64,000 nt of DNA. Origin: Fibrobacterota bacterium (GTDB taxonomy: Bacteria; Fibrobacterota; Fibrobacteria; UBA11236). How positions within the stretch are numbered: position 1 is the stretch's first letter; each line of letters begins with the position of its first letter. A program made the translations under genes and the position numbers. Location: positions 1 to 64,000 of the forward strand of contig JAQBPN010000107.1 in assembly GCA_028287505.1 (NCBI GenBank), written 5' to 3'. The notes under the pieces were generated by a model, which was given only the letters and a program-made list of their open reading frames with translations, did no database searches and was not told the origin of the DNA. Shown one piece after another: positions 6,657-37,462 of this stretch.

Positions 6657-6895
6657 AACAAAAAGGGCCGGCCGCTCCCGCCTTTCTAGAACTCTCCGTT
6701 TTTTCAGCTCCGCCTTATTACGCATGCGCCATCCGCATTATCCGTTCTCCGGCAGGAGACCGGCCTACAGCGCCGAAAACAAAAGCCTTAGCGGGCGGGA
6801 TCGAAATCTGGGAAAGGATTGTTCTCTATCAGATGCACAGACATTGGGGGGGGATTTTTTTATTATCGGCCTTCCCGAAATCCCGGAGATCCTTC

Positions 6896-11779: not shown

Positions 11780-11788
11780 GCGGATGAC

Positions 11789-15446: not shown

Positions 15447-18400
15447 CTATTCGCCGGCGGCGGACGCTGGGCGACTGCCACTTTGCGCGCCCTGCCGGGC
15501 GCTACGTGAGGCAGCCACCTTCTGTCGCTTAAGTTTACGCATCATTTGCTGTGCCTTAAGCACGGGAGCATCGGTTACTCCAGCTGGTATCTCTACTTCG
15601 TCGGTCTCCTGTATGCCCACAAAGAAATGGTTGCTGTCATCAACCTGCCAGGCGGGAATAACGGTGAGCTTAGTTTTCAAAATAGCTCCATGGCGCAATA
15701 GATCTTTTGCACTAGGTCTTTGCGATCGAAAGATAGGATGGAGGAGGTATTTGCCTTGGCGTTTATAGGCATCGAAGAAAGCTTGCATTGGGCCGGGATT
15801 CGCCGAATCAAGCGTTTTTATCTGCGCCATGAATGTTGCATACCTTCCGTCTTCGCGGAGGCTTTCCGGATTGGAAGTAAGCACTACTCGGTAACGGCCT
15901 GGGACTTTCTTTGAAATACCCGTGATGATCGCAATCGAGATTTGCTCATCCTTGTCCTCCTTTCCGATGATGCGAAGCCATTCATTAAAAATGGCTATCC
16001 CGCTTTTCATCTCATCAAATATTAATCCCAACAGTGGAGGAGTATCCTCATTGGGAGAGCTGCCAAAACTAAGCCCCAGCCAATCCGCCTGGCTCCAGTT
16101 CGTGCCATTGATAACTGGCGAAATCACCATGTTACGATGCGCGTGGAGATCCGCTTCTCGCCTTGTCGCCGGCTGCTCCACCTTCATTGAAGTTTTCGCA
16201 GCCCCTTTCGGCGATGGGGATTCTTGTATTTCAGCGGGCGGAACGGTTAGGTACCATGCTTTCTGGCGAACCATAGGGAGTTCAATTACATCCGTAGACC
16301 CTAAAAAATCCTGAAGCGACCGCTTGGGACTGTCACCTAGGGTATCATAAATGGCCGTTCCAATATTTTCAAAATTGAATGCCCTGGCAAAGACCAGCTC
16401 ATTTTGGGCGAGGTCCTCCAGAAATGCCTTTATATCCTTGGATCGAACGACACGGGCAACGATTTCAGAAACGGAACCTATAACCCATGCATGGTGAGCC
16501 TCGCGCTCTTCAAGAGTGCCATATTTAAGGAACCCCGGATGTTGAATTGTAAAGTCAATTGGGCCGCCATCCTCAAGAGCGATGTAGTCTATTTTTTGCG
16601 ATCGGACATTTTTCGAAATTTGGACAGTAAAGGAGGCTCGTTGTGCGAAGACGTCCTTTTCAATGCTCGTCGCAAGGAAACCCTCGAGGGCTGACAAAAG
16701 TATTTCCCCGACCTCCATCGACACCGGGTCCGGTTCGCTCTGCACGGAAATATTGCAACCCAATAGAATTGTTGTCATGGTGACCGGAGTTGTCAAAAAA
16801 TATTCAGGATGACTGGGTATTTTTCGGCCTTCGGGGTGAAGTAACCATTTGCGAAAATGGTCTTCGATTGCACCTGTTGGATTGATCGCCTTGTAAGTTT
16901 CATCGGAAAGGATTCTGTCAACGTGACCAAGAGCAAATAAAGCGGCGTGCCAGGCCAGGGGCAGGCCCATTTTCTCAAGAAGGCCGGGTAGTTGCCCAAG
17001 TCGCAATAAATCCTCGCGGGAGGATTTTAAAATCAGGTGCCCCAGGACAAATTCTTGGTTCTCCCACTCCTCATTAAATCTGCGCCGCTGGTCTCTGTCA
17101 TGGATGACAGCTTTTGCAAGAAGTGCGGTTACCTGCATCCACTCAAGGGCATACCAAATACGGCCGAGATGCAGTTCGATCCAGACAAGTTTTAATGCAC
17201 TAAAGGCAAGGGGCCGGCGGAAGATGCCCTTTCTCCAGCGTTCTGCAGCGGAAATGTGGGCGGCGCCAAGCATATAGCTCCTTGCAATCCAGTACAGCCC
17301 TATTTTTTCGAACGACTCCGCACACGCCACAAGCGCGAGCTCGTACTCGTCTTTTGTCTCTTCCTTCCCAAGAGAGAATTGCGCCTTGCCTAAATATCGA
17401 ATCGCATCGAAATGCCTTTGTGCCCTTTGGGACGCGATCCCGCGTTTAAGGTATACTTCACCGGTCCCCGTTTCCTTGTCTCTTTCGCCCATTATATCTG
17501 CAACTAGGTTGAGTACCTCTTCGTATTCGTCGGTGCTTTCCTGTTGCTCCCCAAAGACTTCAAACATTTCGGCAATTGTTTCAAAGGGAAACTCCACCAA
17601 TCCTCGGCAATTTTCGAAAATTTCTTTGTAGCGACCCAAGTAGGTGGAGAATTCCACCTCGGGATAAGTTACTTGATCCATATGAAGCAAAATGGATTGA
17701 GCCCACAAGGAAGCATTGGGCCGATCGGGATACCCACAATGCCGTTCTATTTCCGCGCGGACGTTGCTTATATGCACTTCTTTTACGGCTGCCTCTTGGG
17801 TCACGAGTCCTTTCAGGCCGGCCACATGCAGGGCACACCAGGTATTAAAAAGGAGCTCTATGTCATCTATGGACATGCTACCGGTGGCTAATTGATAAAT
17901 CGGATCAAAAAGGTCCCGCAAGCCCTCTCCATCATCATGCCAATAAAAAGCAGTTCGTGCGCGTTGGTATAACACCCGAAGCTGTTGTTGTCGTTCCCCA
18001 TACTTCTTTGCAAATCTTTCTGCCCTCGAAAAGCGGCCTTCTACTTCATGCCTGGGGTATTCGAGACCGCGGGAGAGAATCGCCGCTTGCAGCGCATCTT
18101 CTATTTTCTGGTAGGGAACGCCGTTATAATAGGTCTCATCGTCCAGATGGGCTTCTATCTCTTCAAGGTCGGAGCGCTTTTCGGCATCATTTGGTCCTAC
18201 CTTTTCAATTGCATTCTGGTTCAAACCTTTTAGTCCCAGCGTCTCAATAGCCAAGCCGAGGCGCTTGTTGTCGTAGACTTTTTCCTCGATCCAATTACGA
18301 TCACAAATCCAAAGGTCCACTCCATCGCTTTTTTGAAGCGTGTCTTTGAGTTCCGCTTGTTCCCTGCTGCTCACTGCCTGGTTGGTCATGAAATAAATCC

Positions 18401-18845
18401 GAGCATAGTTTCGATTGGTACCCTGGATTTTCTTGATGTCGTCCTTGCATTTGGGCTTCCAGTCCTTTTTTGCACTGAAGGCAAATGCCCACCGTTCACC
18501 GGCAGAAGATGCCTCTGCGTCGTACCAATTCTCACTGACCGATTCCGCTACCGGATAGGTTTCTGTATCCACCTTGCCGTCGCCTCCGCCGGTAGGCCCG
18601 GTTTGCGGGATTAGGTTTCGGCAAATTTCCTTTTCGGCGAGCTTGCGGCAAAATCGCTCGAACTCGTATTCCTTCTTTTGGCGGGTCAGATTCTCAAGGT
18701 GATACCCGAAAACGTCTCTGGGGAGCACGGCTTCGGGCGACCATGTAGTGTCTGAAAAAAGGTGCGGGCGGCGGGCGCGCATATACTCGGACGGGAGCAA
18801 TTGCGCGCCGCTCCCGATCTCCTGTTGGTCATTTTCCTGGGTCAT
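15447..18845 (-). CDS. 1132-aa protein with N-terminal restriction-endonuclease-like (Mrr-type) domain and long helical-repeat body; candidate defence protein
   Basis: Start ATG 18845 with GAGGAAG upstream. Residues about 45-215 look like a PD-(D/E)xK nuclease: a leading YEFERFCRKLAEKEI helix, GPTGGGDGKVDTETYPV with the likely metal-binding Asp89, and the core strand AFAFSAKKDW supplying Ser124-x-Lys126. Then come RIYFMTNQAVSSREQAEL and a DRNWIEEKV segment, as in Mrr-type domains fused to defence proteins. Residues about 225-700 are helix-rich and TPR-like. No Walker A motif is present, so it is not a STAND NTPase. A C-terminal domain (about 915-1090, PLLGLIFDEMKSGIAIFNEW) is not recognisable to me. 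It lies in the tRNA-Pro islet next to two small genes. A role in anti-phage defence is inferred from architecture and location only. Confidence 0.7.
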   Translation of the reverse strand: MTQENDQQEIGSGAQLLPSEYMRARRPHLFSDTTWSPEAVLPRDVFGYHLENLTRQKKEYEFERFCRKLAEKEICRNLIPQTGPTGGGDGKVDTETYPVAESVSENWYDAEASSAGERWAFAFSAKKDWKPKCKDDIKKIQGTNRNYARIYFMTNQAVSSREQAELKDTLQKSDGVDLWICDRNWIEEKVYDNKRLGLAIETLGLKGLNQNAIEKVGPNDAEKRSDLEEIEAHLDDETYYNGVPYQKIEDALQAAILSRGLEYPRHEVEGRFSRAERFAKKYGERQQQLRVLYQRARTAFYWHDDGEGLRDLFDPIYQLATGSMSIDDIELLFNTWCALHVAGLKGLVTQEAAVKEVHISNVRAEIERHCGYPDRPNASLWAQSILLHMDQVTYPEVEFSTYLGRYKEIFENCRGLVEFPFETIAEMFEVFGEQQESTDEYEEVLNLVADIMGERDKETGTGEVYLKRGIASQRAQRHFDAIRYLGKAQFSLGKEETKDEYELALVACAESFEKIGLYWIARSYMLGAAHISAAERWRKGIFRRPLAFSALKLVWIELHLGRIWYALEWMQVTALLAKAVIHDRDQRRRFNEEWENQEFVLGHLILKSSREDLLRLGQLPGLLEKMGLPLAWHAALFALGHVDRILSDETYKAINPTGAIEDHFRKWLLHPEGRKIPSHPEYFLTTPVTMTTILLGCNISVQSEPDPVSMEVGEILLSALEGFLATSIEKDVFAQRASFTVQISKNVRSQKIDYIALEDGGPIDFTIQHPGFLKYGTLEEREAHHAWVIGSVSEIVARVVRSKDIKAFLEDLAQNELVFARAFNFENIGTAIYDTLGDSPKRSLQDFLGSTDVIELPMVRQKAWYLTVPPAEIQESPSPKGAAKTSMKVEQPATRREADLHAHRNMVISPVINGTNWSQADWLGLSFGSSPNEDTPPLLGLIFDEMKSGIAIFNEWLRIIGKEDKDEQISIAIITGISKKVPGRYRVVLTSNPESLREDGRYATFMAQIKTLDSANPGPMQAFFDAYKRQGKYLLHPIFRSQRPSAKDLLRHGAILKTKLTVIPAWQVDDSNHFFVGIQETDEVEIPAGVTDAPVLKAQQMMRKLKRQKVAASRSARQGAQSGSRPASAAGE

Positions 18846-24529: not shown

Positions 24530-25534
24530 ATGATCAGACCCACGGTGACGCTTTTCGCCGGTCTCAGCCTGGCCTTCCTCCTAACCAGCTGCCGCTCGCG
24601 CCAGGAAGCTGCCGGAGACAAATACCGGAAAGCCGGTGACCCCATCCACGCCCTGATGAATTACGAGGAAGCGTTGAAGCGCGGGAAGCTGTCCAAGGAG
24701 TTCTACAAGAACTACACCTTCATCAACATCCAGGCCATGGCCTTCCGCGCCAAGGAAGATCCCACCGCCGAGTTCCTGGACATTCTCAAGGATACGGTGG
24801 CCAGCCTCCTGGGCCAGCATCCCGATCCCGCCAACCAGGAGCTGTTCGTCACCACCCTGGAGAGCATCGCCGCCCAGCGCATGAAGATCGGCTCATCGGA
24901 CGCGGTCGAAGGCGGATTCCGCTTCATCCAGACCGCGGAAAAGGTGAGCGGAAAAACCGGAGCCGCCGCCAACGCCCAGAAACAGGTCGTTGCCGCCAAG
25001 CTGAAGGAAATCGAGGACGATTACCGCGAAGCCTCCTCCTCCCCCACCTCCGGCATCATCGCCGACTACAAGCTGAACAAGCTGGCCCTCATGGTCGGCG
25101 GCGAGACCGCGGAAATGAAGGACCTCTGGTCCAAGGTCCGCAAGCTGAACCTCAACACCTATCTCATGTACGACAATGACGATGTGGATTTGGGCGAACG
25201 CCCGGATTCCCGCATCAACAAGTACGGCATCCTGCTCGGCATCGTGAAATACGAACCGGGCAAGACCACCACCAAGATCCAGGTCAAAGCCTGGAACGGC
25301 ACCTCCGGTCCCATGAAGTTCATCGGTGACAGCTTCACCCTGGTCGACAAGGACGGCAACGTCTTCAAGGCCAGCGGGAAAATCGGCGGCTTCGCCAAGA
25401 CCGACAAAGACCTGATTGCCAAGGGCGAAGAATCCAAGACCGGCGGACTAACCTTCAACCACCCGGCCGGCACCGTGCCCTCCTATCTGGAGTTCAAGGG
25501 CGTTTCCGGAACCACCCGCAAGTACCTCCCATAA
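24530..25534 (+). CDS. Lipoprotein of unknown function
   Basis: 334 aa. The signal peptide ends in a clear lipobox (FLLTSC, Cys at about residue 21), so the protein is membrane-anchored. Residues about 25-210 are helix-rich and TPR-like (DPIHALMNYEEALKRGKLS). The last ~110 residues (KYGILLGIVKYEPGK ... YLEFKGVSGTTRKYLP) form a beta domain resembling the DUF4352-type Ig-like fold that carries exposed loops. SD AAAGGACG precedes the ATG. The gene stands alone and ends at a strong terminator (25592-25623). No function can be assigned. Confidence 0.8.
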   Translation: MIRPTVTLFAGLSLAFLLTSCRSRQEAAGDKYRKAGDPIHALMNYEEALKRGKLSKEFYKNYTFINIQAMAFRAKEDPTAEFLDILKDTVASLLGQHPDPANQELFVTTLESIAAQRMKIGSSDAVEGGFRFIQTAEKVSGKTGAAANAQKQVVAAKLKEIEDDYREASSSPTSGIIADYKLNKLALMVGGETAEMKDLWSKVRKLNLNTYLMYDNDDVDLGERPDSRINKYGILLGIVKYEPGKTTTKIQVKAWNGTSGPMKFIGDSFTLVDKDGNVFKASGKIGGFAKTDKDLIAKGEESKTGGLTFNHPAGTVPSYLEFKGVSGTTRKYLP

Positions 25535-25591: not shown

Positions 25592-25623
25592 AGCGACCGG
25601 ACAATGTCCGGTCGCTTTTTTTT
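25592..25623 (+). terminator. Rho-independent terminator
   Basis: AGCGACCGGAC pairs perfectly with GTCCGGTCGCT (11 bp) around an AAT loop, followed by an eight-T run. It ends the lipoprotein transcript 58 bases after its stop and would stop read-through into the antisense strand of the protease gene. Confidence 0.93.
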
Positions 25624-25644: not shown

Positions 25645-25671
25645 TTATCGGGATATCACCAGGACGTTGCG
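25645..25671 (-). repeat. Vestigial copy of the protease 3' end
   Basis: In the minus direction this segment encodes RNVLVISR-stop, a near copy of the last eight codons of the adjacent protease (RNTLVISR-stop). It lies 45 bases beyond that protease's own stop. The same arrangement occurs at 29950-29976 behind the second protease. Confidence 0.65.
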
Positions 25672-25689
25672 GGCGCAACACTCCGGGGC

Positions 25690-28600
25690 CTAACGGGATA
25701 TCACCAGAGTGTTGCGCTTGGAGCTCAAGGTCCGGTATTCCGGACGGGCATTGAAGTCGGTGAGGATTTGGCGGGCCGTGACCTTGTAGAAATATACCCC
25801 GTTAGCCAGCAGGTTACCCCAATTGTCATGCCCGTCCCAACTGGTCTGACCGGATATGGCCTTGGGGAATATGCGCACCAGATTGCCGCTCTGGTTGAAG
25901 ATCCGGATTTCATATTCCAACCGGTCCTTGCCCGCATCCGGATCCCCGAACTCCAGATCGGCGGGCGGCATGAGAGTGCCGAAATGGAAGGTGGTGCCAT
26001 CGCGCTTCATGGGATTGGGGAAGTTGTAGGCGCTGAATACCGCGATGGAACTGTCCACGGTCAAGTCCATCTGCAATTGCCGCTGGCTGATATTGCCATA
26101 GCCGTCCCGGGCGGAGACCTTGAGCAGATGCGGGCCCGGTTGGATGCTCTTTTTGTTCAGGGAGAATTGATAGGACTTGAGATTCAGCTCATCGATACCG
26201 GGCAAGGGATGGAAGGGATCGAGCACGCCGGGGATTTCCAGCGTGGTGCCTTCATCCGGCCCCTCCGCCGAAAGCACGCCACCCAAAGAGTCTTGGACAT
26301 AGATTTGCATGCAGTACGGCAGGGACAGTTTCACGTGATCGGGGAAGTCCAGGTTGGCCGTCTCCTTGGTTTCGCAGCCGGTGATACGGATGCGGGGCCC
26401 TTTGCCATCCGAATCGGTGGCGCAGGCACTTTGGGCCGTGCCGTTGATATGCAAATTCAATCTGGCGGTGGTCCCTTCCATCTCCACGCTATCGTCCCAG
26501 GCGAAGACCTGGACCTGGGCGGTGGTGTCGCCGAAGGAAATCTGCTTGGGGATGAAATACTCCGTCGAGAAGGCGCCGTCCTTGTAAGGGAATGTCCTCT
26601 CGAACAGGATATTGCCCCGCTTGTCCGCATCCTGGGGATTGGTGCCTTCGGATTTATAGTGCTTGTGTACCGAACCGGCGACGATTTTCACGTTGACCTT
26701 GCCGGTGCCCGAGCCTCCGGTGATGCGGCCCTTGAGGGTGCTGCAGTCCAGGGCCTGGATGGAGTCCATTACCTGGGTCATGGACACGTTGAGCTGGGGC
26801 TTGCGGAGCAGCAGGACAGGCTCGCCAAGCAGGTTGTATTTGGAGTCATTATTGATGTTTCCTGATGCACCTGAGTTTTTCGCTTCCCGTAATGCGTCTC
26901 CCACAGTTACGACCATTCCGGTGGAGTCCGGAGGAAAGACGCGATCATAGAAGGCATGTGCCAGCGCGACATTTTCCAGCGGATAGGATTCCCGCGTCGC
27001 GGAGATGGCGGCTATCGCGCCTACCCCTTGATGTTTCACGAACTGTTCACTCATACCCTCGCTGGTCAGGCTTTCAAAGCGCCCCACGGTGCAGGAGAAG
27101 GCATTCACCATAGGGGTGCGGCCTTCATTGTGCATGCGGGATAGGGCATTGTCGGTCTGGAGCAGTACTTCGTCCGCCCATTGGTTGGAGGCGCCATGGC
27201 CCACGTAATTGATCATCAGGGCGCCGCGGTTGATCAGGGACAGCAGGTCTTGGGCGGCTTCCGGCTTGTGGTAAGCGGAATTCATCGGGTAATCCAGGAG
27301 ATAGATCTTGTCGATGGTGACGCCTTTTTCATTGCTGGAAATCCGCCGCCCCAAATCGTCCGAAGAGGTGGTGTGTCCGTAAATGATCGGATCTATGTCC
27401 CCTGGTGCGCCACGCTGAATGTTGTCGTCCGCTACCATCACTACACGGCCGCGCCATTCCCCGGCCAGGGCCGGATTTTCAAAATCCGCCATCTTCTTGA
27501 GGTAATTCGCGGCTTCATCCGTGTTCTGTACCGGCAACCGGCCCAGGGCCACGTCAAGTCCGTCCGAGGGCCCGATGTCGCCCGGGTCGAGCATTCCATA
27601 GAAGTCATCGGAAGCCGTTGCCTCCCCGTCAATGTTGAACTCATTGGGCGGAATGAGATTGGGCGGCGAGGATTTCATCTGGGAAGCGCGGATGTTGCGG
27701 CAATCGTAGTTGCCATCGCCAAAGAAGACCACGTACTTGAGCCGGCCGGATGCGGATTTGTTCCCCCAGCCGTTGTACGCATAGCGGAGGAAGTCGCGGA
27801 TGGCCGGGACCGACATGCGACCGCTGGAAAACTGGCGGTAGATATCCTCCACCAGCACCACTTCCGTCTTCACCTGGAAGGCGCGCTTGGCCGAGTTGCG
27901 GTAGTCCCGCAGGGCGAAGGCCTGCTCCAACAGGGGCCGAGGCGCCACGATCAGATATTCCGGATTCTTTCCGTCCCCGGTGCCAAGGTTCCGGATGGCT
28001 CCGGTCGCGGGGAGGCCTTCCATTTCCATGGAAGCCGCGGTAAGGGGCACCGCATTCCGGAACAGAAAATATTTCGCATCCGCATTCAGTACCAGGCTGT
28101 CGGTGAAAATACCCTGACCATCCAGGGTCATCAGGCGTCCGGCCACGCCATCCTCGATGCGGAGGCAGGTCAACCCCGCCCCGCCCTGTACTTTGTAGGA
28201 CACGGTCTTTCCGGTTTCAGGTGGGAAAATCCAAAGCGGGTCGCCCGTGAAGACATGGTTTTTCCGGTACCGGATCGTGTACCCTTTAAAGCCCATTTTG
28301 CGACCGCGCCATTGCAGTTTGTCCAATTGGAAAGCCGGCGGGGAGGCCAATGGACCCGTCCACACATACCAGGCTCCCGGGGATCCGGTATTGGGCAGGT
28401 AGTCCAACTTTTTCCCATTTTCCCCGTAATAGGGCGTGAAATCGTCATTGGTGCTCGAAGTGTAAACGTAGAATCCGAGCAACAGTGAATCATTCCCATT
28501 GCTTGCCGCGAGATTGGGCAATGTCGCGGTCTCTTCGCTGAACAGGTTCTGGCGGGTCAGAGTGATTTCCGTGTCCGGGTTTTCACATCGGCCCTTCCAG

Positions 28601-29853
28601 TACCAGAACCAATCGTCGCCGGTTTCTTCATCTTTATGACTGGGACGAGATAGATCGCATCCCCCCGTCTGCAAATCCTTTCCCGCGCGAAGGAAACCGT
28701 AAGAGTTGGTCAGGAGAGAGCCCGTGGCAGGAGATGCCGCGGAAGCCGTCAGCCGTGGACCCGCCGCTATCCCGCTGGCGTAGTCGAGGTAGTAGCCGTT
28801 CTCAAAAGAATAAGGATCGTTGGAAAACTCGAATTGGATCCTGGCGGTATCGGACTGGCGTCTCCACACGCTGGTTCCGTGGCCGAAGAAGCGGATCGAA
28901 TCCTGGTCGTCGAAGGTGCCGTTATCGTTCTTGTCCACCACTTCCATGGGAATCTCCCGCAAGGTGCCGGAAGCCGGCTCGGTCGAATCCATATGGCGGG
29001 ACAGGGTGTCGTTGATGCCCGTGAGCAGGCGCAGGTTCCCGATCTTGACGCCGCTCAATTCCAGCCCGCTCGCCACCTTGGACAGTTCGGAAAAGGAAAC
29101 CGAGTACATCCGATCTTCCCTGAAGCTCTCCACCGCCTTGTCCCCGATCCTGATCTTGATGAACTTGGCCCCAAGCGAATCCCGGGCGGCGGTCGTCTTG
29201 GCCAAAGGGCGCGGCCGCGGCGAGGGATAGAGATAAGCGCCCCCGTCGGGATTCTTGACCTCCCGGCGGTAATTGCCCGTCAGGCGCAGCGTGGAAGGGC
29301 GCGGCAGGACAGTGCCGAAGTCCACCTGCACCTGCATGCGTTTGATGAGGGTGAGGGTTTTGGACGCTTCGGACCAGAGGGCCAAGGGCACTTCCAATCC
29401 ACGCACGGGAGCCCCGCGCAGATAGCGGATGTCGAAGGACCGGGCGATGAGGCCGCGGGCATCCCGGTAGGATTCGGGATCGACGTGGTATTCCCATTTG
29501 GAAGGCGTGGGTGTTTTCGGATAGGGCGCGATGCCTTCGGGCACGGGGCGGGTTTCCGACTCAAGGATGCGGAAGGTGACGGTGGGGACATTGGGGCCGG
29601 TGAGAACATTGAAGCGATAGACGGGGAGGTCGGGAGCGCCGGGACGACCCGATTCCAGGCAGCCTTCACAGGTGACCTTCATGCCCGGAGTGACGCCAAC
29701 GGGCTGCAGGGATGGGGTGGGAACCGTGAGCTCCAGGACCAGGCGGCCGGGGCTGTCTTCCAGCACCTTGTCCAGGTGGGTGCCAGGCCCCGCGGCCTCC
29801 ACAACGGCGTGAAGGCAAAGGAGCAGCAAGGGTATGCATTCGTATTTGATCAT
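25690..29853 (-). CDS. Gingipain-type C25 cysteine peptidase, copy 1
   Basis: 1387 aa with an N-terminal signal peptide (KYECIPLLLLCLHAVVEAA). A long N-terminal region (about 30-600) contains beta-rich propeptide-like domains. The C25 peptidase domain follows, with the catalytic pair visible: His886 in NYVGHGASNQW and Cys921 in NAFSCTVGRF. The LKYVVFFGDGNYD strand lies upstream of it. The C-terminal ~90 residues are a FlgD-like Ig fold (TSWDGHDNWGNLLANGVYFY). Size and layout resemble PorU, the sortase of the type IX secretion system, more than classic gingipains. Location would be the cell surface. The neighbouring gene is a close paralogue. Which of the two, if either, acts as sortase cannot be told from sequence. 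Confidence 0.88.
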   Translation of the reverse strand: MIKYECIPLLLLCLHAVVEAAGPGTHLDKVLEDSPGRLVLELTVPTPSLQPVGVTPGMKVTCEGCLESGRPGAPDLPVYRFNVLTGPNVPTVTFRILESETRPVPEGIAPYPKTPTPSKWEYHVDPESYRDARGLIARSFDIRYLRGAPVRGLEVPLALWSEASKTLTLIKRMQVQVDFGTVLPRPSTLRLTGNYRREVKNPDGGAYLYPSPRPRPLAKTTAARDSLGAKFIKIRIGDKAVESFREDRMYSVSFSELSKVASGLELSGVKIGNLRLLTGINDTLSRHMDSTEPASGTLREIPMEVVDKNDNGTFDDQDSIRFFGHGTSVWRRQSDTARIQFEFSNDPYSFENGYYLDYASGIAAGPRLTASAASPATGSLLTNSYGFLRAGKDLQTGGCDLSRPSHKDEETGDDWFWYWKGRCENPDTEITLTRQNLFSEETATLPNLAASNGNDSLLLGFYVYTSSTNDDFTPYYGENGKKLDYLPNTGSPGAWYVWTGPLASPPAFQLDKLQWRGRKMGFKGYTIRYRKNHVFTGDPLWIFPPETGKTVSYKVQGGAGLTCLRIEDGVAGRLMTLDGQGIFTDSLVLNADAKYFLFRNAVPLTAASMEMEGLPATGAIRNLGTGDGKNPEYLIVAPRPLLEQAFALRDYRNSAKRAFQVKTEVVLVEDIYRQFSSGRMSVPAIRDFLRYAYNGWGNKSASGRLKYVVFFGDGNYDCRNIRASQMKSSPPNLIPPNEFNIDGEATASDDFYGMLDPGDIGPSDGLDVALGRLPVQNTDEAANYLKKMADFENPALAGEWRGRVVMVADDNIQRGAPGDIDPIIYGHTTSSDDLGRRISSNEKGVTIDKIYLLDYPMNSAYHKPEAAQDLLSLINRGALMINYVGHGASNQWADEVLLQTDNALSRMHNEGRTPMVNAFSCTVGRFESLTSEGMSEQFVKHQGVGAIAAISATRESYPLENVALAHAFYDRVFPPDSTGMVVTVGDALREAKNSGASGNINNDSKYNLLGEPVLLLRKPQLNVSMTQVMDSIQALDCSTLKGRITGGSGTGKVNVKIVAGSVHKHYKSEGTNPQDADKRGNILFERTFPYKDGAFSTEYFIPKQISFGDTTAQVQVFAWDDSVEMEGTTARLNLHINGTAQSACATDSDGKGPRIRITGCETKETANLDFPDHVKLSLPYCMQIYVQDSLGGVLSAEGPDEGTTLEIPGVLDPFHPLPGIDELNLKSYQFSLNKKSIQPGPHLLKVSARDGYGNISQRQLQMDLTVDSSIAVFSAYNFPNPMKRDGTTFHFGTLMPPADLEFGDPDAGKDRLEYEIRIFNQSGNLVRIFPKAISGQTSWDGHDNWGNLLANGVYFYKVTARQILTDFNARPEYRTLSSKRNTLVISR

Positions 29854-29949
29854 CAGGACATTTCCGCGCGTGCCCTAGATGAATACCAAGGTCGCGGAAC
29901 GATGTCACGCCGGAAACCGGATTTGAGAGCGGTTTTTTTTACCGGGGGA

Positions 29950-29976
29950 TCAGCGGGATATCACCAGGATGTTGCG
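29950..29976 (-). repeat. Vestigial copy of the protease 3' end (second)
   Basis: This encodes RNILVISR-stop in the minus direction, 45 bases after the stop of the upstream protease copy, exactly as at 25645-25671. It shows that the duplicated unit already contained this small terminal repeat. Confidence 0.65.
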
Positions 29977-29994
29977 GGCGCAACACTCCGGGGC

Positions 29995-32900
29995 CTAACG
30001 GGATATCACCAGAGTATTGCGCTTGGAACTCAAAGTCCGGTAGTCCGGTTTCGCGTTGAAGTCGGTGAGGATTTGGCGGGCCGTGACCTTGTAGAAATAC
30101 ACGCCGTTGGCCAGCAGGTTACCCCAATTGTCATGCCCGTCCCAGTTCGTCTGGCCCGATACGGCTTTCTGGAAGATCCGCACCACGTTGCCGCTCTGGT
30201 TGAAGATCCGGATTTCATATTCCAACCGATCCTTGCCCGCATTGGGATCCCCGAACTCCAGATCGGCGGGCGGCATGAGGGCGCCGAAATGGAAGGTGGT
30301 GCCGTCGCGCTTCATGGGATTGGGGAAGTTGTAGGCGCTGAATACCGCGATGGAACTGTCCACGCCCAGGTCCATCTGCAATTGGCGTTGGCTGATGTTG
30401 CCGTAGCCGTCCCGGGCGGAGACCTTGAGCAGATGTGGGCCCGGCTGGATGGATTTCTTGTTCAGCGAGAACTGATAGGACTTGAGATTCAGTTCATCGA
30501 TGCCGGGCAAGGGATGGAAGGGATCGAGCACGCCGGGAATCTCAAGCGTAGTGCCCTCATCCGGGCCCTCGGCCGAGAGCACGCCGCCCAGGGAATCCTG
30601 CACGTAGATCTGCATGCAGTACGGCAGGGTAAGCCTCACGTGATCGGGGAAGTCCAGGTTGGCCGTCTCCTTGGTCTCGCAGCCGGTGATGCGGATGCGC
30701 GGGCCCTTGCCGTCCGAATCGGTGGCGCAGGCGCTTTGGGCGGTGCCGTTGATGCGCAGGTTCTGCTTGGCGGTGGAGCCTTCCATCTCCACGCTGTCGT
30801 CCCAGGCGAAGACCTGGACCTGGGCGGTGGAGTCGCCGAAAGAGATTTGCTTGGGGATGAAATACTCCGTCGAGAATGCTCCATTGGTATACGGGAATGT
30901 CCGTTCGAACAGGATATTGCCGCGCTTGTCCACTTCCTGCGGGCTGGTGCCTTCCGCCTTGTAGGTCTTGTGGATGGAACCCGCGACGATTTTCACGTTG
31001 ACCTTGCCGGCGCCCGAGCCCCCCGCAATGCGGCCCTTGAGAGTGCTGCAATCCAGGGCCTGGATGGAATCCATCACCTGGGTCAGGCCCACGTTGAGCT
31101 GGGGCTTACGAAGGAGAAGGACCGGCTCGCCCAGCAATTGGTATTTCAAATCGTTCAGGTTGTCGATATTGGTCTCGCCCCCGTTCTTGGCTTCCCGCAA
31201 GGCGTCTCCCACCGCGACCACCAGACCCGAGGAGTCTTCGGGAAATGCCAATTGATAAAAGGCATGGGCCAGCGCGATATTGGGCGCGGGAAAGGATTCC
31301 CGGGTGGCGGAGATGGCGCCTATCGCGCCTATGCCTTTCTGCTTCACGAACTGTTCGCTCATGCCTTCGCTGGTCAGGCTTTCAAAGCGGCCTACGGTGC
31401 AGGAGAAAGCATTCACCATGGGCGTGCGGCCTTCATTGTGCATGCGGGAAATGGCATCGTTGGTCTGGAGCAGCACTTCATCCGCCCATTGGTTGGAGGC
31501 GCCGTGGCCGACATAATTGATCATCAGGGTGCCGCGGTTGATCAGGGACAGCAGGTCCTGGGCGGCTTCCGGCTTGTGGTAGGCGGAGTTCATCGGGTAG
31601 TCGAGGAGATAGATCTTGTCGACGGTGACGCCTTTTTCATTGTCGGTGATCCGCCGTCCCAATTCGTCCGAATCGGTGGTGTGCCCGCGGGAAATCAGAT
31701 CGATATCTCCCGGGTTTCCGCGCTGGATGTTGTCGTCGGCGGCCATCACCACACGGGAGCGCCATTCGCCGGCCATGGCGGGGCTTTCGTAATCCGAGAT
31801 TTTTTTGAGGTAATCGACCGCCTCATCGGCTGTCTGGATGGGAACACGGCCCAATGCCAAGTCCAGCTTGCCGCCCGTATAGCCGAAGTCGCCCGGGTCC
31901 AGCATCACGTAGAAGTCGTCGGAAGCCACTTCCTCCCGGCCGCCGTCCACGATGAACTCGAAGGGGGGGATGAGGTTGGGCGGCGCAGCTTTCATCTGGG
32001 AAGCGCGAATGTTACGGTAATCGTAGTTGCCATCGCCGAAGAAGACCACGTACTTGAGCCGGCCGGATGCGGCATTGTTCCCCCAACCGTTGTAGGCGTA
32101 GCGGAGGAAGTCGCGGATGGCCGTGACCGACATGCGGCCGCTGGAAAACTGGCGGTAGATATCCTCCACCAGCACCACTTCCGTCTTCACCTGCAAGGCC
32201 CGCTTGGAGGAGTTGCGATAGTCTCGCAAGACCGCGGCTTGTTCCAACAGGGGCCGGGAGGTCACAATCAGATATTCCGGGTTCTTGAGGTCCCCATTTC
32301 CCAGGTTGCGGAGGGCTCCCGCCGAAGGCAGGCCGTCCATCTCGAGGGAAGCGGCGGTCAAAGGGACGGCGTTCCGGAACAGGTAATATCTTGCATTCGC
32401 ATTCGAGGCCAGGCTGTCCGTGAAAATCCCCTGACCGTCCAGGGTCATTCTGCGGGTAGCCACGCCGTCCTCGATGCGGAGGCAGGTCAACCCCGCCCCG
32501 CCCTGCACTTTGTAGGAAAGGGGCTTTCCGGTTTCAGGAGGGAAAATCCACAGCGGCTCTCCCGAAAAGACATTGTTACGGCGATACCGGACGGTAAAGC
32601 CTTCGAACCGCATTTCGCGTCCACGCCACTGAAGCTTGTCCAAGGCAAGGGCGGGAGCACCGGGCAGCGGATGTGTCCATACGAACCAGGTGCCGGGGGA
32701 TCCGGTATCCCGGTAGGGCTCCAGGGTGTCCCCCGACCCGCCGAAGTAAGCCGTGAAGACACTGTCCGAATGGGAGGCGTAAGTGTAGAACCCCAGGAAC
32801 AGGGAATCGTCCGGGCCGGTGCGGATGTAGTCCGGGAGGGTGGCGGTCTCTTCGCTGGTCAGGTTCTGCCGGGTCAGGATGACTTCCGTGTCCGCATAGG

Positions 32901-34179
32901 TTTCACACCGGCCTTTCCAATACCAGAACCAATCGTAGCCGGTTTCTTCATCCTTATGCATGGATGGATCACATCCCGCGGTCAGCAGATCCTTTTCCGC
33001 CCGGAGGTATGAGTAGGAGTTCGTCAGAGGGGTACCCGTGGCGGGAGATGACGCGGAAACGGAGAGCCTCGGGCCTGCTTCGATACCGCTTGAGAAGTCG
33101 AGATAGTACCCGTTCTCGAAGGAATAGGGATCGGAGGAAAATTCGAATTGGATCTTGGCGGTATCGGCAAGGCGCTTCCAGACGCTGGTCCCATGGCCGA
33201 AGAAGCGCAGCGAGTCCTGATCATCGAAGGTGCCGTTGTCGTTCTTGTCCACCACTTCCATGGGGATCTCCCGCAAGGTGCCGGAAACCGGTTCGGTCGA
33301 ATCCATGTGGCGGGGCAAAGTGTCGTTGATGCCCGTGAACAGACGCAGATTTTTGATCTTGACGCCGTTCATTTCCCCGCCGGCCACCTTGGACAGTTCG
33401 GAAAAGGAAACCGAGTACAGGCGGTCTTCCTTGAAGCTCTCCAACGCCTTGTCCCCGATCTTGATCTTGATGAATCTGCTTCCCAGGGAATCCCGGGCAG
33501 CCGTCCTCTTGGCCAGGGCGCGCGGGCGCGGCGAGGGATAGAGATACGCTCCCCCATCGGGATTCTTCACCTCCCGGCGGTAATTCCCGGTCAGACGCAG
33601 GGAGGACGGACGCGACAGGATGTTGGCGAAGTCCACCTGCACTTGCATGCGCTTGATGAGCGTGAGGGTTTTGGAATCTTCGGACCAAAGGGCCAAGGGC
33701 ACTTCCAATCCGCGAACGGGGGTCCCGCGCAGGTAGCGGATGTCGAAGGGCCGGGCGATGAGGCCGCGGGCGGCCCGGTAGGATTCGGGATCGACGTGGT
33801 ATTCCCATTTGGAAGGCGTGGGTGTTTTCGGATAGGGCGCGATGCCTTCGGGCACGGAGCGGGTTTCCGACTCAAGGATACGGAAGGTGACGGTGGGAGG
33901 ATTGGGCCCGCTCAAGACATCGAAGCGGTAGACGGGCAGATCGGGGGCGCCGGGGCGCCCGGATTCGAAGCACCCGGGACAGGTGACCTTCATGCCCGGG
34001 GTGACGCCCACGGGATGCAGGGACGGGGCGGGGACGTTGAGTTCCAGGATCAGGCGGCCGGGGCTGTCTTCCAGCACCTTGTCGAGAGGGGCGGCGGCGA
34101 GGGCGGGAACGGCAGCGGACAGCAACCCAAGGAGCAGGAAAGGAACCCATGAACCGATCCGTTTACCGATGCCTGTCAT
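29995..34179 (-). CDS. Gingipain-type C25 cysteine peptidase, copy 2
   Basis: 1394 aa and colinear with copy 1 over its full length, with most differences clustered in the N-terminal signal, a segment around residues 380-520 and the linker before the C25 domain. The catalytic residues are His892 (NYVGHGASNQW) and Cys927 (NAFSCTVGRF). The signal peptide differs (GSWVPFLLLGLLSAAVPALAA), and the C-terminal FlgD-like domain is nearly identical. This is the upstream gene of the tandem pair, 141 bases before copy 1. Conservation of the active site in both copies suggests both are functional, perhaps with different substrates or dosage effects. Confidence 0.88.
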   Translation of the reverse strand: MTGIGKRIGSWVPFLLLGLLSAAVPALAAAPLDKVLEDSPGRLILELNVPAPSLHPVGVTPGMKVTCPGCFESGRPGAPDLPVYRFDVLSGPNPPTVTFRILESETRSVPEGIAPYPKTPTPSKWEYHVDPESYRAARGLIARPFDIRYLRGTPVRGLEVPLALWSEDSKTLTLIKRMQVQVDFANILSRPSSLRLTGNYRREVKNPDGGAYLYPSPRPRALAKRTAARDSLGSRFIKIKIGDKALESFKEDRLYSVSFSELSKVAGGEMNGVKIKNLRLFTGINDTLPRHMDSTEPVSGTLREIPMEVVDKNDNGTFDDQDSLRFFGHGTSVWKRLADTAKIQFEFSSDPYSFENGYYLDFSSGIEAGPRLSVSASSPATGTPLTNSYSYLRAEKDLLTAGCDPSMHKDEETGYDWFWYWKGRCETYADTEVILTRQNLTSEETATLPDYIRTGPDDSLFLGFYTYASHSDSVFTAYFGGSGDTLEPYRDTGSPGTWFVWTHPLPGAPALALDKLQWRGREMRFEGFTVRYRRNNVFSGEPLWIFPPETGKPLSYKVQGGAGLTCLRIEDGVATRRMTLDGQGIFTDSLASNANARYYLFRNAVPLTAASLEMDGLPSAGALRNLGNGDLKNPEYLIVTSRPLLEQAAVLRDYRNSSKRALQVKTEVVLVEDIYRQFSSGRMSVTAIRDFLRYAYNGWGNNAASGRLKYVVFFGDGNYDYRNIRASQMKAAPPNLIPPFEFIVDGGREEVASDDFYVMLDPGDFGYTGGKLDLALGRVPIQTADEAVDYLKKISDYESPAMAGEWRSRVVMAADDNIQRGNPGDIDLISRGHTTDSDELGRRITDNEKGVTVDKIYLLDYPMNSAYHKPEAAQDLLSLINRGTLMINYVGHGASNQWADEVLLQTNDAISRMHNEGRTPMVNAFSCTVGRFESLTSEGMSEQFVKQKGIGAIGAISATRESFPAPNIALAHAFYQLAFPEDSSGLVVAVGDALREAKNGGETNIDNLNDLKYQLLGEPVLLLRKPQLNVGLTQVMDSIQALDCSTLKGRIAGGSGAGKVNVKIVAGSIHKTYKAEGTSPQEVDKRGNILFERTFPYTNGAFSTEYFIPKQISFGDSTAQVQVFAWDDSVEMEGSTAKQNLRINGTAQSACATDSDGKGPRIRITGCETKETANLDFPDHVRLTLPYCMQIYVQDSLGGVLSAEGPDEGTTLEIPGVLDPFHPLPGIDELNLKSYQFSLNKKSIQPGPHLLKVSARDGYGNISQRQLQMDLGVDSSIAVFSAYNFPNPMKRDGTTFHFGALMPPADLEFGDPNAGKDRLEYEIRIFNQSGNVVRIFQKAVSGQTNWDGHDNWGNLLANGVYFYKVTARQILTDFNAKPDYRTLSSKRNTLVISR

Positions 34180-34284
34180 GAGTCTCCGCCGGTGCTCCTG
34201 GACACCCGCTAAAGGGGCGAAATTGCGTCCAATATACTTACAAAGTCCGGCTGGGAGGGGAAAGCGGGGATGGGGTTTTTGTGC

Positions 34285-35199
34285 CTATTTCCAGATGAAG
34301 TAGGTGCCTTGGCGGACCGAAGGCAGCCAATCCCTCGCGGCTTCGGCGAGGGGTCCGAAGGAAGAGGACGTTTTCGAGGCCAAGGCGTTTTCAATCCATG
34401 ATTTGGAGGGTGGTTCCCTCACGACGATGGGCTCGCCTTCCAGCTTCACCAGGCCGGCCAGGTAATGCTTGGCTTCCTGATACCCGCCCAGGGTGTCCAC
34501 CAGGCCGTAGGCTTTGGCCTGGCTGCCGGTCAGGATGCGCCCATCGGCTATTTTCATGAGTTCGGATCTTTCGATCTTCCGGCTGGCCAGGATATCCGAG
34601 ATGAACTGCCCGTAGGTATTGTCGATGACCGTCTGGAGATAACGGATTTCTTCCGGCGTGGGCGGCCGCGCGAAGTTGCCCACGTCCTTGAGGGCGCCGC
34701 TCTTGATGGTATTCATCTTGATGCCGACCTTCTCCATCAGCTTTTCCGCTTCCGGGAATTGCAGGATCACGCCGATGCTGCCCGTCAGGGTCCCGGCGTT
34801 GGAGAAGATGCGATCGCCGGCCAGGGACACATAGTAGCCGCCGGAAGCGGCCAGATTCCCCTGGCTGACCACGATGGGCAGACCTTTGGCCTTGAGGGTT
34901 TTCAGCGCCGAATGGATTTCCTGGGAGGCCCCCACGGCGCCGCCGGGAGAATCGATGCGGAGCAGGATGCCTTTGCAGCTCTTGTCCTCCGAGATGCGCT
35001 GGATGCTCTCCATATAGGTGTCCGAGCTCATGATGGGGCCTTCCAGCCGGAGCTCGGTGATGTGGGCGCGGCGTTCCTTGAACCCGTCGGTATTGGCGGC
35101 CAGGCGCCCGAACAGGGCGAAGACCGATCCCAGGAAAAAGAACACGGAGATGACCAATATAATCGCGAGGGCGGCCATGATTTTGGCGAATCGGCTCAT
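34285..35199 (-). CDS. sppA: Signal peptide peptidase SppA, short (67K-less) form
   Basis: 304 aa, the short single-domain form. A transmembrane anchor (about 7-30) is followed by the S49 peptidase domain. The catalytic Ser119 lies in NLAASGGYY, and Lys171 is 52 residues later in SGALKDVG, the same spacing as in Bacillus SppA. IDSPGG and GSIGVI are further family landmarks. It degrades leftover signal peptides in the membrane. The SD GGAGGG precedes ATG 35199. It follows the lytic transglycosylase gene by 25 bases and probably shares its transcript. Confidence 0.93.
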   Translation of the reverse strand: MSRFAKIMAALAIILVISVFFFLGSVFALFGRLAANTDGFKERRAHITELRLEGPIMSSDTYMESIQRISEDKSCKGILLRIDSPGGAVGASQEIHSALKTLKAKGLPIVVSQGNLAASGGYYVSLAGDRIFSNAGTLTGSIGVILQFPEAEKLMEKVGIKMNTIKSGALKDVGNFARPPTPEEIRYLQTVIDNTYGQFISDILASRKIERSELMKIADGRILTGSQAKAYGLVDTLGGYQEAKHYLAGLVKLEGEPIVVREPPSKSWIENALASKTSSSFGPLAEAARDWLPSVRQGTYFIWK

Positions 35200-35224: not shown

Positions 35225-37462
35225 TTATTTGACCCGGACCCGGGTGCCGGGCCTTAGGACCGACGCCAGCTTGCCGTTCAGGTCCTTGAGTTTCTGTACG
35301 GTAGTGCGGTATTTCACGGAGATGTCCCACAGGCTGTCTCCGTCCTTGACGACGTAGAAGACTTTCTCTTCCTTGGCGGGCGGAACGCGTGGGCTGATGA
35401 AACCGGCCGAAGCCATCGGGGCCATTTTGGCGGACTTGAGCGCCTGCGCCGCGGCCGCGGGGGATTTGTACTCGGGGTCGTCGGAGCTGTCGTCGCCGTC
35501 GGAGGCGTCGGCTTTCCCGGAAGCGGAAGCCGCCTTGTCGGGCTCGTTCCCGCCCTTGGGGGCCACGTACTTCAGCTTCTGCCCCACCTGGATGCGGTTG
35601 CCCTCGAGGTTGTTCCATTGGCGGAGATCATCCTCGCTCACTCCCAGCGAACGGGTCAGGGAATACAGGGTCTCCCCCGTCTCCACGGTATGCACGCCGA
35701 ACTTTCCCGCGGGAGGCGCCACTACGTTGCCGGGGGTTTCCACGGCGCGCGGGGCTTTCTCCCTGGGAATGATGGCCATGGCGGCGACCGGAGGTTCACG
35801 ATGGATTTCAGGCTCATCGGATCCGTAGCCGGACTGGGCCTTGCCGGACAGCTTCAGCCGCTGGCCCGCCCTGATGAGCGTTCCCCGCGACATGTTGTTG
35901 GCCGCCAGCAACGCGGAAACCGTGGTGCCGAAACGTCTCGCGATATCGAAGAGGTTGTCGCCGGATCTCACTCGGTAAGTCCCGCCCTTGAATTTGGATT
36001 GGCGCGCCGGAGCTTCCGCCACGTCCTGCTCAAGATATTTTCCCGCATCCTCGGGAGCCAGCGGAATCAGGAGACTTTGGCCCTTCTTGAGCCGATTGCC
36101 TTTGATCTTGTTGGTGGCCCGGATGGCCGCCACGGAAACCCGGTATTTGGAGGCGATGCCGGAGAGGTTTTCGCCCTTGCCCACGATATGGTGGCGCCAA
36201 TTGACCAGTTGGGACTTGTCCAGGAGTTCGTAGTTGCGGCAGAATAGGTCCCGGCTGCCGGTGGGCAGATAGAGGATATGGGCGATGCGGTTGGGGGGCG
36301 TGCACCAGCGGCGCAAGGAGGGATTCAGGGAAAGGATGGTATCCTCGCTCACCCCTGCCGATTTGGCGATGGTGGCGATGGTGAGGCAATTGGTCACGGT
36401 GACGGTATCGAAAGAGAGGGCGGACTCGGGATTTTCGATCTTGAACCCGTAACGCTCCGGGTTGTGCCCGATGATCATGGCGGCCAGGATCTTGGGGACG
36501 TAGAAGCGCGTTTCCTGGGGCAAGGGCATCTTCCAATACCCGCGCGTGGAATCCTGGGCCAGGTATTTCCGGATCTTGCCTTCGCCGCAATTGTAGGCGG
36601 CCATGGCCATGTGCCAATCCTGGAACTCATCGTGCAGGTCGTTCAGGTACTCCAGGGCCGCATCGGTGGCCAACATGGGATCCCGGCGCGGATCGTACCA
36701 CCAGTCGTCCGCCAGGCCGTAACGCCTGCCCGTACCGCTGATGAACTGCCACATGCCGCTGGCGGACGCCTTGGACCAGGCTTTGGGGTTGAACCCGCTC
36801 TCCACCATCGCCAGGTAGATCAGGTCCTTGGGCATGCCCTTTTCCTCGAGCTTTTTATGGACCAGGCCCTCGTAGCGGGATTTGCGCGTCAGCCATTTGG
36901 TGAAATACCCCTTGCCCGGTCCCATGAAGACCGCCATCGCCTGCAGGATGCGGGGCTCCAGCGGAGTGGTCAGGGGCAATTCGTAATTACGGGGATCGAT
37001 CTGGTGGGTGATCGAATCCATGGCCTTGACCGAGGAATCCGGGACCTCTTCCATCTCCTCGTTGAACTGGGCGGTCCAGGGCACGGGCTGGGCCATCTGG
37101 CTGGTCATGGCCACGGTGAAGATCAGCAGCTTCTGGACGCTGTCCCGGTAGCCCTTGATGTGGGAAAGCACCGTGGGGCTCAGGGAATCGGTGGCCTCCA
37201 GGGCGGACAGGCGCGTCAAAGCGCTGTCGAAGTCCTCCCCGGCCTGGAACCACAGGGAATCCTTGATGCTCTCGTGGCCCAGATTGACGAACTCGGCCAC
37301 TTCCGAAAAGAGCATCTGCTCTTCCGGGACCAGGACGGGCGCCTTGGTGACGGCGGCGGCGGAATCGGCCTTCAACACCGAGGCCTTTTGGGCCGGCGGT
37401 TTACTACCCGAGCAGGCCCACAGGAAAGCGAGGGCCGATAGCAGGCATAACTGCTTTTTCAA
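35225..37462 (-). CDS. MltD-like lytic transglycosylase lipoprotein with four LysM domains
   Basis: 745 aa from a TTG (GAGG six bases upstream) with lipobox LWAC (Cys17). The SLT transglycosylase domain spans about 200-330. Catalytic Glu221 is in MVESGFNPKAWS, followed by ASGMWQFISGTGRRYGL and MAAYNCGEGKI. Four LysM peptidoglycan-binding modules follow at about 428-472, 495-540, 595-640 and 700-745, with the YxVxxGDxLxxIA pattern. It cleaves glycan strands to 1,6-anhydromuramyl ends at the outer-membrane inner face. MltD normally has two LysM domains, so four is an expanded form. Acid-rich and alanine-rich linkers separate the modules. It lies in the co-directional envelope block. Confidence 0.92.
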   Translation of the reverse strand: MKKQLCLLSALAFLWACSGSKPPAQKASVLKADSAAAVTKAPVLVPEEQMLFSEVAEFVNLGHESIKDSLWFQAGEDFDSALTRLSALEATDSLSPTVLSHIKGYRDSVQKLLIFTVAMTSQMAQPVPWTAQFNEEMEEVPDSSVKAMDSITHQIDPRNYELPLTTPLEPRILQAMAVFMGPGKGYFTKWLTRKSRYEGLVHKKLEEKGMPKDLIYLAMVESGFNPKAWSKASASGMWQFISGTGRRYGLADDWWYDPRRDPMLATDAALEYLNDLHDEFQDWHMAMAAYNCGEGKIRKYLAQDSTRGYWKMPLPQETRFYVPKILAAMIIGHNPERYGFKIENPESALSFDTVTVTNCLTIATIAKSAGVSEDTILSLNPSLRRWCTPPNRIAHILYLPTGSRDLFCRNYELLDKSQLVNWRHHIVGKGENLSGIASKYRVSVAAIRATNKIKGNRLKKGQSLLIPLAPEDAGKYLEQDVAEAPARQSKFKGGTYRVRSGDNLFDIARRFGTTVSALLAANNMSRGTLIRAGQRLKLSGKAQSGYGSDEPEIHREPPVAAMAIIPREKAPRAVETPGNVVAPPAGKFGVHTVETGETLYSLTRSLGVSEDDLRQWNNLEGNRIQVGQKLKYVAPKGGNEPDKAASASGKADASDGDDSSDDPEYKSPAAAAQALKSAKMAPMASAGFISPRVPPAKEEKVFYVVKDGDSLWDISVKYRTTVQKLKDLNGKLASVLRPGTRVRVK

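What the first reader, a model, noticed from the sequence alone, without database searches (positions are those of the whole stretch)
25645..34179. Tandem pair of ~1390-aa C25 (PorU/gingipain-like) proteases
Two colinear genes of 1387 and 1394 aa with intact catalytic His/Cys (His886/Cys921 and His892/Cys927) lie head to tail. They are nearly identical across the C-terminal half but differ in signal peptides and in patches of the N-terminal half. This looks like duplication followed by gene conversion or diversifying change at the N-terminal, probably substrate-facing part. PorU is normally single-copy.
Basis: partly seen in the sequence, partly recalled or inferred. Interest (0 to 1): 0.5.

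Follow-up and report, generated by a model that had tools for sequence, protein, structure and literature searches.

The report
Twin secretion sortases, one overwritten
Two neighbouring genes in a Fibrobacterota genome encode near-twin copies of PorU, the enzyme that trims and anchors proteins exported by the type IX secretion system, and one copy appears to have had almost its whole body overwritten by the other while keeping its own promoter and signal peptide.

Summary
Confirmed: two intact PorU-type C25 genes lie head to tail on the minus strand (A, 25690-29853; B, 29995-34179), both with the His/Cys dyad. They are 82.7% identical; near-identity is confined to the last ~250 residues, not the C-terminal half, and two diverged patches lie in the catalytic domain. 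Synonymous sites form a real mosaic: 66-87% four-fold identity over most of the gene but 39-56%, near the between-species level, in patches. The A slot is older than its body: A's leader matches the A genes at the same place in two relatives (its signal peptide one of them) and not B, whereas A's body is sister to B of the same genome. Identity to B starts just after the signal peptide and stops 41 nt past the stop codon. Best reading: B-to-A gene conversion replaced ~4.1 kb of an old tandem paralogue, followed by further conversion. dN/dS is 0.18, so diversifying selection is not supported. Both copies pass the PorU model; translocon, shuttle-family and cargo-tail genes are present. 23 of 167 Fibrobacterota genomes show two or more PorU matches. 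A functional split between the copies is inferred, not shown.

The parts
25690..29853 (-). PorU copy A (1387 aa), C25 protease, dyad His886/Cys921, C-terminal FlgD/CHU_C-like tail
29995..34179 (-). PorU copy B (1394 aa), C25 protease, dyad His892/Cys927
   Evidence: AlphaFold model of residues 200-1394 matches PorU 6ZA2
29773..29853 (-). signal-peptide end of copy A that is A-type: 35 of the first 60 nt identical to A of G004, 14-17 of 60 to the three B genes compared
29861..29945 (-). leader of copy A, homologous to the leaders of A in G004 and G005, not to B leaders
25649..29772 (-). stretch of A whose sequence is B-derived (inferred conversion tract, about 4.1 kb)
   Evidence: boundaries; body sister to B
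29954..34083 (-). corresponding donor stretch in B
25593..25615 (-). terminator-like hairpin after A, similar to the one after A of G004; lies outside the tract
34227..34244 (-). conserved B leader motif TTTGTAAGTATATTGGAC, shared in form by the B genes of relatives
32539..33144 (-). diverged patch 1 of B (residues ~346-547), synonymous identity to A at between-species level for most of it
31681..31977 (-). diverged patch 2 of B (residues ~735-833), in the C25 domain
31105..31311 (-). diverged patch 3 of B (residues ~957-1025), starting in the C25 domain after the catalytic Cys
34285..35199 (-). S49 (SppA-like) peptidase gene, syntenic neighbour next to B in all six genus members
35225..37462 (-). 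LysM + SLT lytic transglycosylase gene, syntenic neighbour
24530..25534 (+). unnamed 334-aa gene, convergent syntenic neighbour on the A side

Best explanation
Two functional type IX secretion sortases (PorU) encoded in tandem. The slot next to SppA (B) and the slot behind it (A) both existed in an ancestor of G000, G004 and G005. In the window's lineage the coding body of A, from just after the signal peptide to 41 nt past the stop codon, was replaced by the body of B through gene conversion, leaving A with its own leader, signal peptide and terminator region. Later, shorter conversions re-homogenised much of the length but left patches at roughly the divergence of separate species. Both products are inferred to do the PorU job: cleave the C-terminal tail of cargo outside the outer membrane with the Cys/His dyad and pass the cargo to an amine acceptor or anchor. 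Because the leaders differ while the bodies are kept alike, the likeliest use is two differently expressed copies of one activity, with some tuning through the patches. Shown here: gene structure, dyad, mosaic, slot orthology, tract ends. Inferred: the order of events, activity, expression and any specialisation.
For: Synteny (PFK, 334-aa gene, PorU, SppA, LysM-SLT) is kept in all six genus genomes, with A present behind B in G000, G004 and G005 and absent in G001, G002 and G003. Tree of 19 PorU rows: A and B of G000 are sisters (100/100), while A of G004 and A of G005 form another, deeper clade (100/100). A leaders align with each other (scores 64, 47, 45; 0 of 3000 shuffles each); A of G000 does not align beyond chance with six B-type leaders (B of G000, G001, G002, G003, G004 and the C150 copy of G001; scores 17-20, p 0.09-0.47 at most 0.36 in the leader test). 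The signal peptide of A matches A of G004 (0 of 5000 shuffles). Sharp ends: identity to B begins at 29772 and ends 41 nt (one mismatch) after the stop. Mosaic of 601 four-fold sites: variance p 5e-5 in 20000 permutations; controls G002-G004B 0.35, B-G002 0.054, B-G004B 0.39; longest identical run 84 nt, p 0.0008; two-state gain 14.9 against a permutation maximum of 2.4. Outside the patches all five rival placements of A are rejected (AU p <= 0.0002). Both copies pass NF033707 and the dyad is present in 19 of 19 rows.
Against: In the patches A plus B is still the best tree, and A outside B/G002/G004 is neither best nor rejected (nt, AU 0.122); patch 1 alone rejects it (0.037), patches 2 and 3 are undecided. 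So the patches are not shown to be relics of the first divergence; import from an unsampled relative or faster change in A remain open. Patches 1 and 2 reject descent from the old A clade (AU 0.038, 0.002). The terminator match holds for A of G004 but not for A of G005 (p 0.74), and G002, which has no A, also gives a weaker match (p 0.0035). A of G005 matches the A signal peptide only weakly (p 0.014). The pair G000_A-G002_B also shows heterogeneity (p 0.0013) and B-G005_B marginally (p 0.038). The B leader of G005 was not in the leader test. Function of either copy is untested; the number of PorV-family matches does not follow the number of PorU genes.
Confidence: 0.72

Rival explanations
1. 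Plain recent tandem duplication of B in the window's lineage, with no older A gene: A is just a diverging duplicate.
For: A and B are sisters over most of the length.
Against: A's leader matches those of A in G004 and G005, and its signal peptide that of A in G004, in the same slot; a duplicate of B would bring or share B's leader or have an unrelated one. Synonymous identity would be uniform; it is not.
Confidence: 0.12
2. Diversifying (positive) selection on the substrate-facing part produced the patches.
For: A-only codon changes in the patches are richer in nonsynonymous ones (18:25) than elsewhere (10:39).
Against: Synonymous sites in the patches are about as diverged as between species (39-56% four-fold identity), which selection on protein does not give; dN/dS there is 0.14-0.22; patches also lie in the catalytic domain.
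Confidence: 0.08
3. The two copies are specialised for different cargo: conversion is tolerated or favoured in shared parts, while the patches set cargo-tail or partner specificity.
For: The region 440-560 is also the most type-specific stretch between the old A and B genes of G004/G005 (within type 51-52%, between types 30-35%). Matches to the type A tail model number 42, 36, 28, 30 in the four genus genomes with two PorU genes and 27, 23 in the two with one.
Confidence: 0.3
4. Assembly or binning artefact: two strains' alleles or a chimera placed in tandem.
For: The genome is in 130 contigs and reads are not available.
Against: Two intact ORFs with distinct flanks on one contig; the same two-gene arrangement at the same place in G004 and G005, separate assemblies.
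Confidence: 0.04

Closest known systems
PorU, type IX secretion sortase of Porphyromonas gingivalis (PDB 6ZA2; NCBIfam NF033707)
   Same: C25 catalytic domain with His/Cys dyad, long N-terminal beta part, C-terminal tail domain; best Foldseek match of the model (E 1.4e-50), sequence match over 620-1366 (E 6.6e-40)
   Different: About 17-18% identity in the structural alignments; here two adjacent genes
PorU2 (NCBIfam NF052324, putative second sortase)
   Same: A named paralogous PorU-like family
   Different: A and B score 101 and 117 bits against a cut-off of 450; no paper in the library holds the word PorU2
Gingipains RgpB and Kgp (C25)
   Same: Same catalytic fold (Z 33-38, rmsd 2.2-2.9)
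   Different: Cargo proteases, not sortases (recalled); the match covers only model residues 433-934, the catalytic part and what follows

Membership tests
PorU / T9SS sortase (NF033707) | Score over the curated model cut-off (420 bits) | tested here: met
   431.7 (A) and 463.6 (B) for the whole proteins; the six-frame search gave 403.4 for A (below) and 423.6 for B
PorU / T9SS sortase (NF033707) | C25 domain with catalytic His and Cys | tested here: met
   Peptidase_C25; dyad in 19 of 19 rows
PorU / T9SS sortase (NF033707) | Whole-length PorU architecture with tail domain | tested here: met
   model of B residues 200-1394 (mean pLDDT 78.3) aligns to 6ZA2 over 33-1113 (Z 22.0, rmsd 12.0, 773 aligned); tail hits FlgD_ig and CHU_C just below their cut-offs
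PorU / T9SS sortase (NF033707) | Genome encodes the T9SS translocon, shuttle family and cargo tails | tested here: met
   SprA in 61 of 61 genomes, own genome included; PorV family 17 matches in the own genome; 42 type A tail matches. PorZ: best 99 bits against a cut-off of 260; GldM model silent everywhere, uninformative
PorU / T9SS sortase (NF033707) | Cleaves cargo tails and transfers cargo to an anchor | not testable with these tools
   needs biochemistry
PorU2 (NF052324) | Score over the curated cut-off (450 bits) | tested here: not met
   100.9 and 116.6 bits

The most novel reading that the evidence does not exclude
Conversion keeps the two sortases able to pair: P. gingivalis PorU is held inactive as a dimer, and repeated B-to-A copying may preserve a shared dimer and partner interface so that A, made from its own promoter, acts as a regulatory or latency partner of B (a mixed dimer), with the diverged patches setting the difference.
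Probability: 0.12. Interest if true: 0.6.

Novelty: new variant of a known kind. Interest (0 to 1): 0.4.

Why it matters
PorU is the gate through which type A cargo of the type IX system passes, and it is mostly studied as a single gene. A lineage that keeps a second copy, and rewrites it from the first while keeping a separate promoter and signal peptide, gives a natural setting to ask whether sortase dose, timing or specificity limits surface display. It also warns that a gene tree of the bodies alone misdates the duplication.

Tried and rejected
Old-A relics in the patches: tested by trees of the patches; rejected for patches 1 and 2, undecided for 3, and A-only residues do not favour the old A genes (13 and 12 of 80 match A of G004 and G005). 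Link with PorV number: none visible. PorU2 membership: not met; literature on PorU2: none. Papers on PorU as sortase, on PorU with paralogues, on Fibrobacter T9SS with PorU, on Fibrobacteres T9SS, on bacterial gene conversion with signal peptides and on two copies were searched; I saw listings only, apart from passages of PMC10202324, PMC11285876, PMC12618676 and PMC11205867 and a find in PMC8545088 without hits. In those listings and passages I saw no report of a tandem PorU pair; this does not prove absence. The PorU latency paper is not held; its statement is taken from passages of PMC10202324. Searches for PorZ, GldM and type B tails in the own genome gave no match over a cut-off. VIA-align rows for complement proteins cover only the beta-rich C-terminal part and were not used.
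Full report
What is there. Two intact genes lie head to tail on the minus strand: copy B (29995-34179, 1394 aa) first in reading direction, then copy A (25690-29853, 1387 aa) after 141 bp. Both carry a Peptidase_C25 domain and both pass NCBI's PorU model NF033707, at 431.7 and 463.6 bits against a cut-off of 420. SprA is found in the own genome, with 17 PorV-family matches and 42 type A tail matches.

Identity along the pair. Overall 1144 of 1384 aligned residues are the same (82.7%). The two halves differ modestly (79% and 87%, my sums's blocks); only the last 247 columns are near-identical (95%). NG86 dN is 0.107 and dS 0.594 (ratio 0.18). Four-fold-site identity between A and B, by stretch of B: 25-340 75%, 340-440 50%, 440-560 39%, 560-660 66%, 660-745 87%, 745-860 50%, 860-945 78%, 945-1050 56%, 1050-1150 72%, 1150-1394 77%. 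Between species it averages 48% for B against G002 and against G004 B. Permutation shows clustering that orthologue pairs mostly lack; the pair A-G002 is also heterogeneous (p 0.0013), and B-G005 marginally so (p 0.038). A two-state segmentation without preset limits finds the longest low stretches at 346-410, 445-547, 735-833 and 957-1025, together with many short ones, so the fine map should not be over-read.

The slot is older than the body. Synteny is kept across the six genomes of the genus: PFK, a 334-aa gene, PorU, SppA, LysM-SLT lytic transglycosylase, TPR-TonB protein (parts run off the fetched stretch in some). G000, G004 and G005 have two PorU genes there; G002 and G003 have one; G001 has one there and another on a different contig. 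In the tree of 19 PorU rows the bodies of A and B of G000 are sisters, whereas A of G004 and G005 form a separate deep clade. Yet the 100 nt before the start of A in G000 align with those of A in G004 and G005 (scores 64 and 47, 0 of 3000 shuffles) and with none of six B-type leaders beyond chance. A's signal peptide matches that of A in G004 (score 46, 0 of 5000 shuffles); 35 of its first 60 nt agree, against 14-17 with the three B genes compared. It matches A of G005 only weakly (p 0.014). B's leader and the start of its signal peptide match B of G002 and G004.

Tract ends. Near-identity between A and B begins at 29772, just behind the signal peptide, and runs on to 41 nt behind the stop codon (40 of 41 the same), where it ends abruptly; beyond it A's flank has a hairpin like that behind A of G004 (0 of 2000 shuffles), not found behind A of G005 (p 0.74) and weakly behind B of G002 (p 0.0035). 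The simplest history is replacement of A's body by B's, about 4.1 kb, with later conversions. What the patches are is open: trees of the patch columns still prefer A with B, reject the old A clade for two of three, and do not settle whether A falls outside B and its orthologues.

Selection. dN/dS in the patches is about 0.14-0.22, so no positive selection is seen. A has more nonsynonymous singletons there than B (18 of 43 against 1 of 15 codons). Both genes look maintained.

How common. In 167 Fibrobacterota genomes searched with the PorU model at E <= 1e-60, 161 have a match and 23 have two or more. At most four candidates per genome were scored, some genomes are 5-8% contaminated, and genes cut by contig ends may count twice. 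Neighbouring pairs on one contig were seen in G000, G004, G005, G012 and G087. In G012 and G014 the two copies pair across genomes, an older duplication without such overwriting.

Function. The model of B residues 200-1394 (mean pLDDT 78.3) has the dimeric latent PorU of P. gingivalis, 6ZA2, as best Foldseek match. From passages of the review PMC10202324: PorU cleaves the cargo tail with a Cys/His dyad, transfers cargo to A-LPS or releases it, and is inhibited on dimerisation. By homology both copies should do this. That A and B have separate leaders but converted bodies points to separate expression of one activity; no experiment here tests it. The dimer idea in the novel case rests on 6ZA2 and that review alone.

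Noticed in passing
window 25649-25689 and 29954-29994: Behind the stop of both PorU genes, 41 nt end in a near-repeat of the last codons of the gene (N-x-L-V-I-S-R), as if the gene's end had been duplicated before conversion.
   Followed up: partly
window 34227-34244 and relatives: B genes of G000, G002, G004, G001 and (in part) G003 share the leader motif TTTGTA..TAT.TTGGAC or a close form, perhaps a promoter type of this group; only one match in the window.
   Followed up: partly
L039:9341-13546 (G001:C150): G001 has a second PorU on another contig, sister to its own syntenic copy, with a B-like leader: a separate, dispersed duplication.
   Followed up: partly
G087:C257:2191-9619: Another tandem PorU pair in a different family of the phylum.
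   Followed up: no
window 6833-14326: A 1648-aa protein with several carbohydrate-binding and PKD domains and a TonB-dependent receptor, in a GC-rich stretch (65%) beside a 1132-aa gene of about 49% GC without Pfam or NCBIfam hits (15447-18845).
   Followed up: no
G000:C101, C39, C16: Further C25 proteins in the own genome with open frames of 1684, 594 and 775 aa.
   Followed up: no
G000:C76:44940-51131: A PorV-family match and a 754-aa PorZ-like protein with a type A tail lie within about 6 kb, a possible attachment-complex locus.
   Followed up: no
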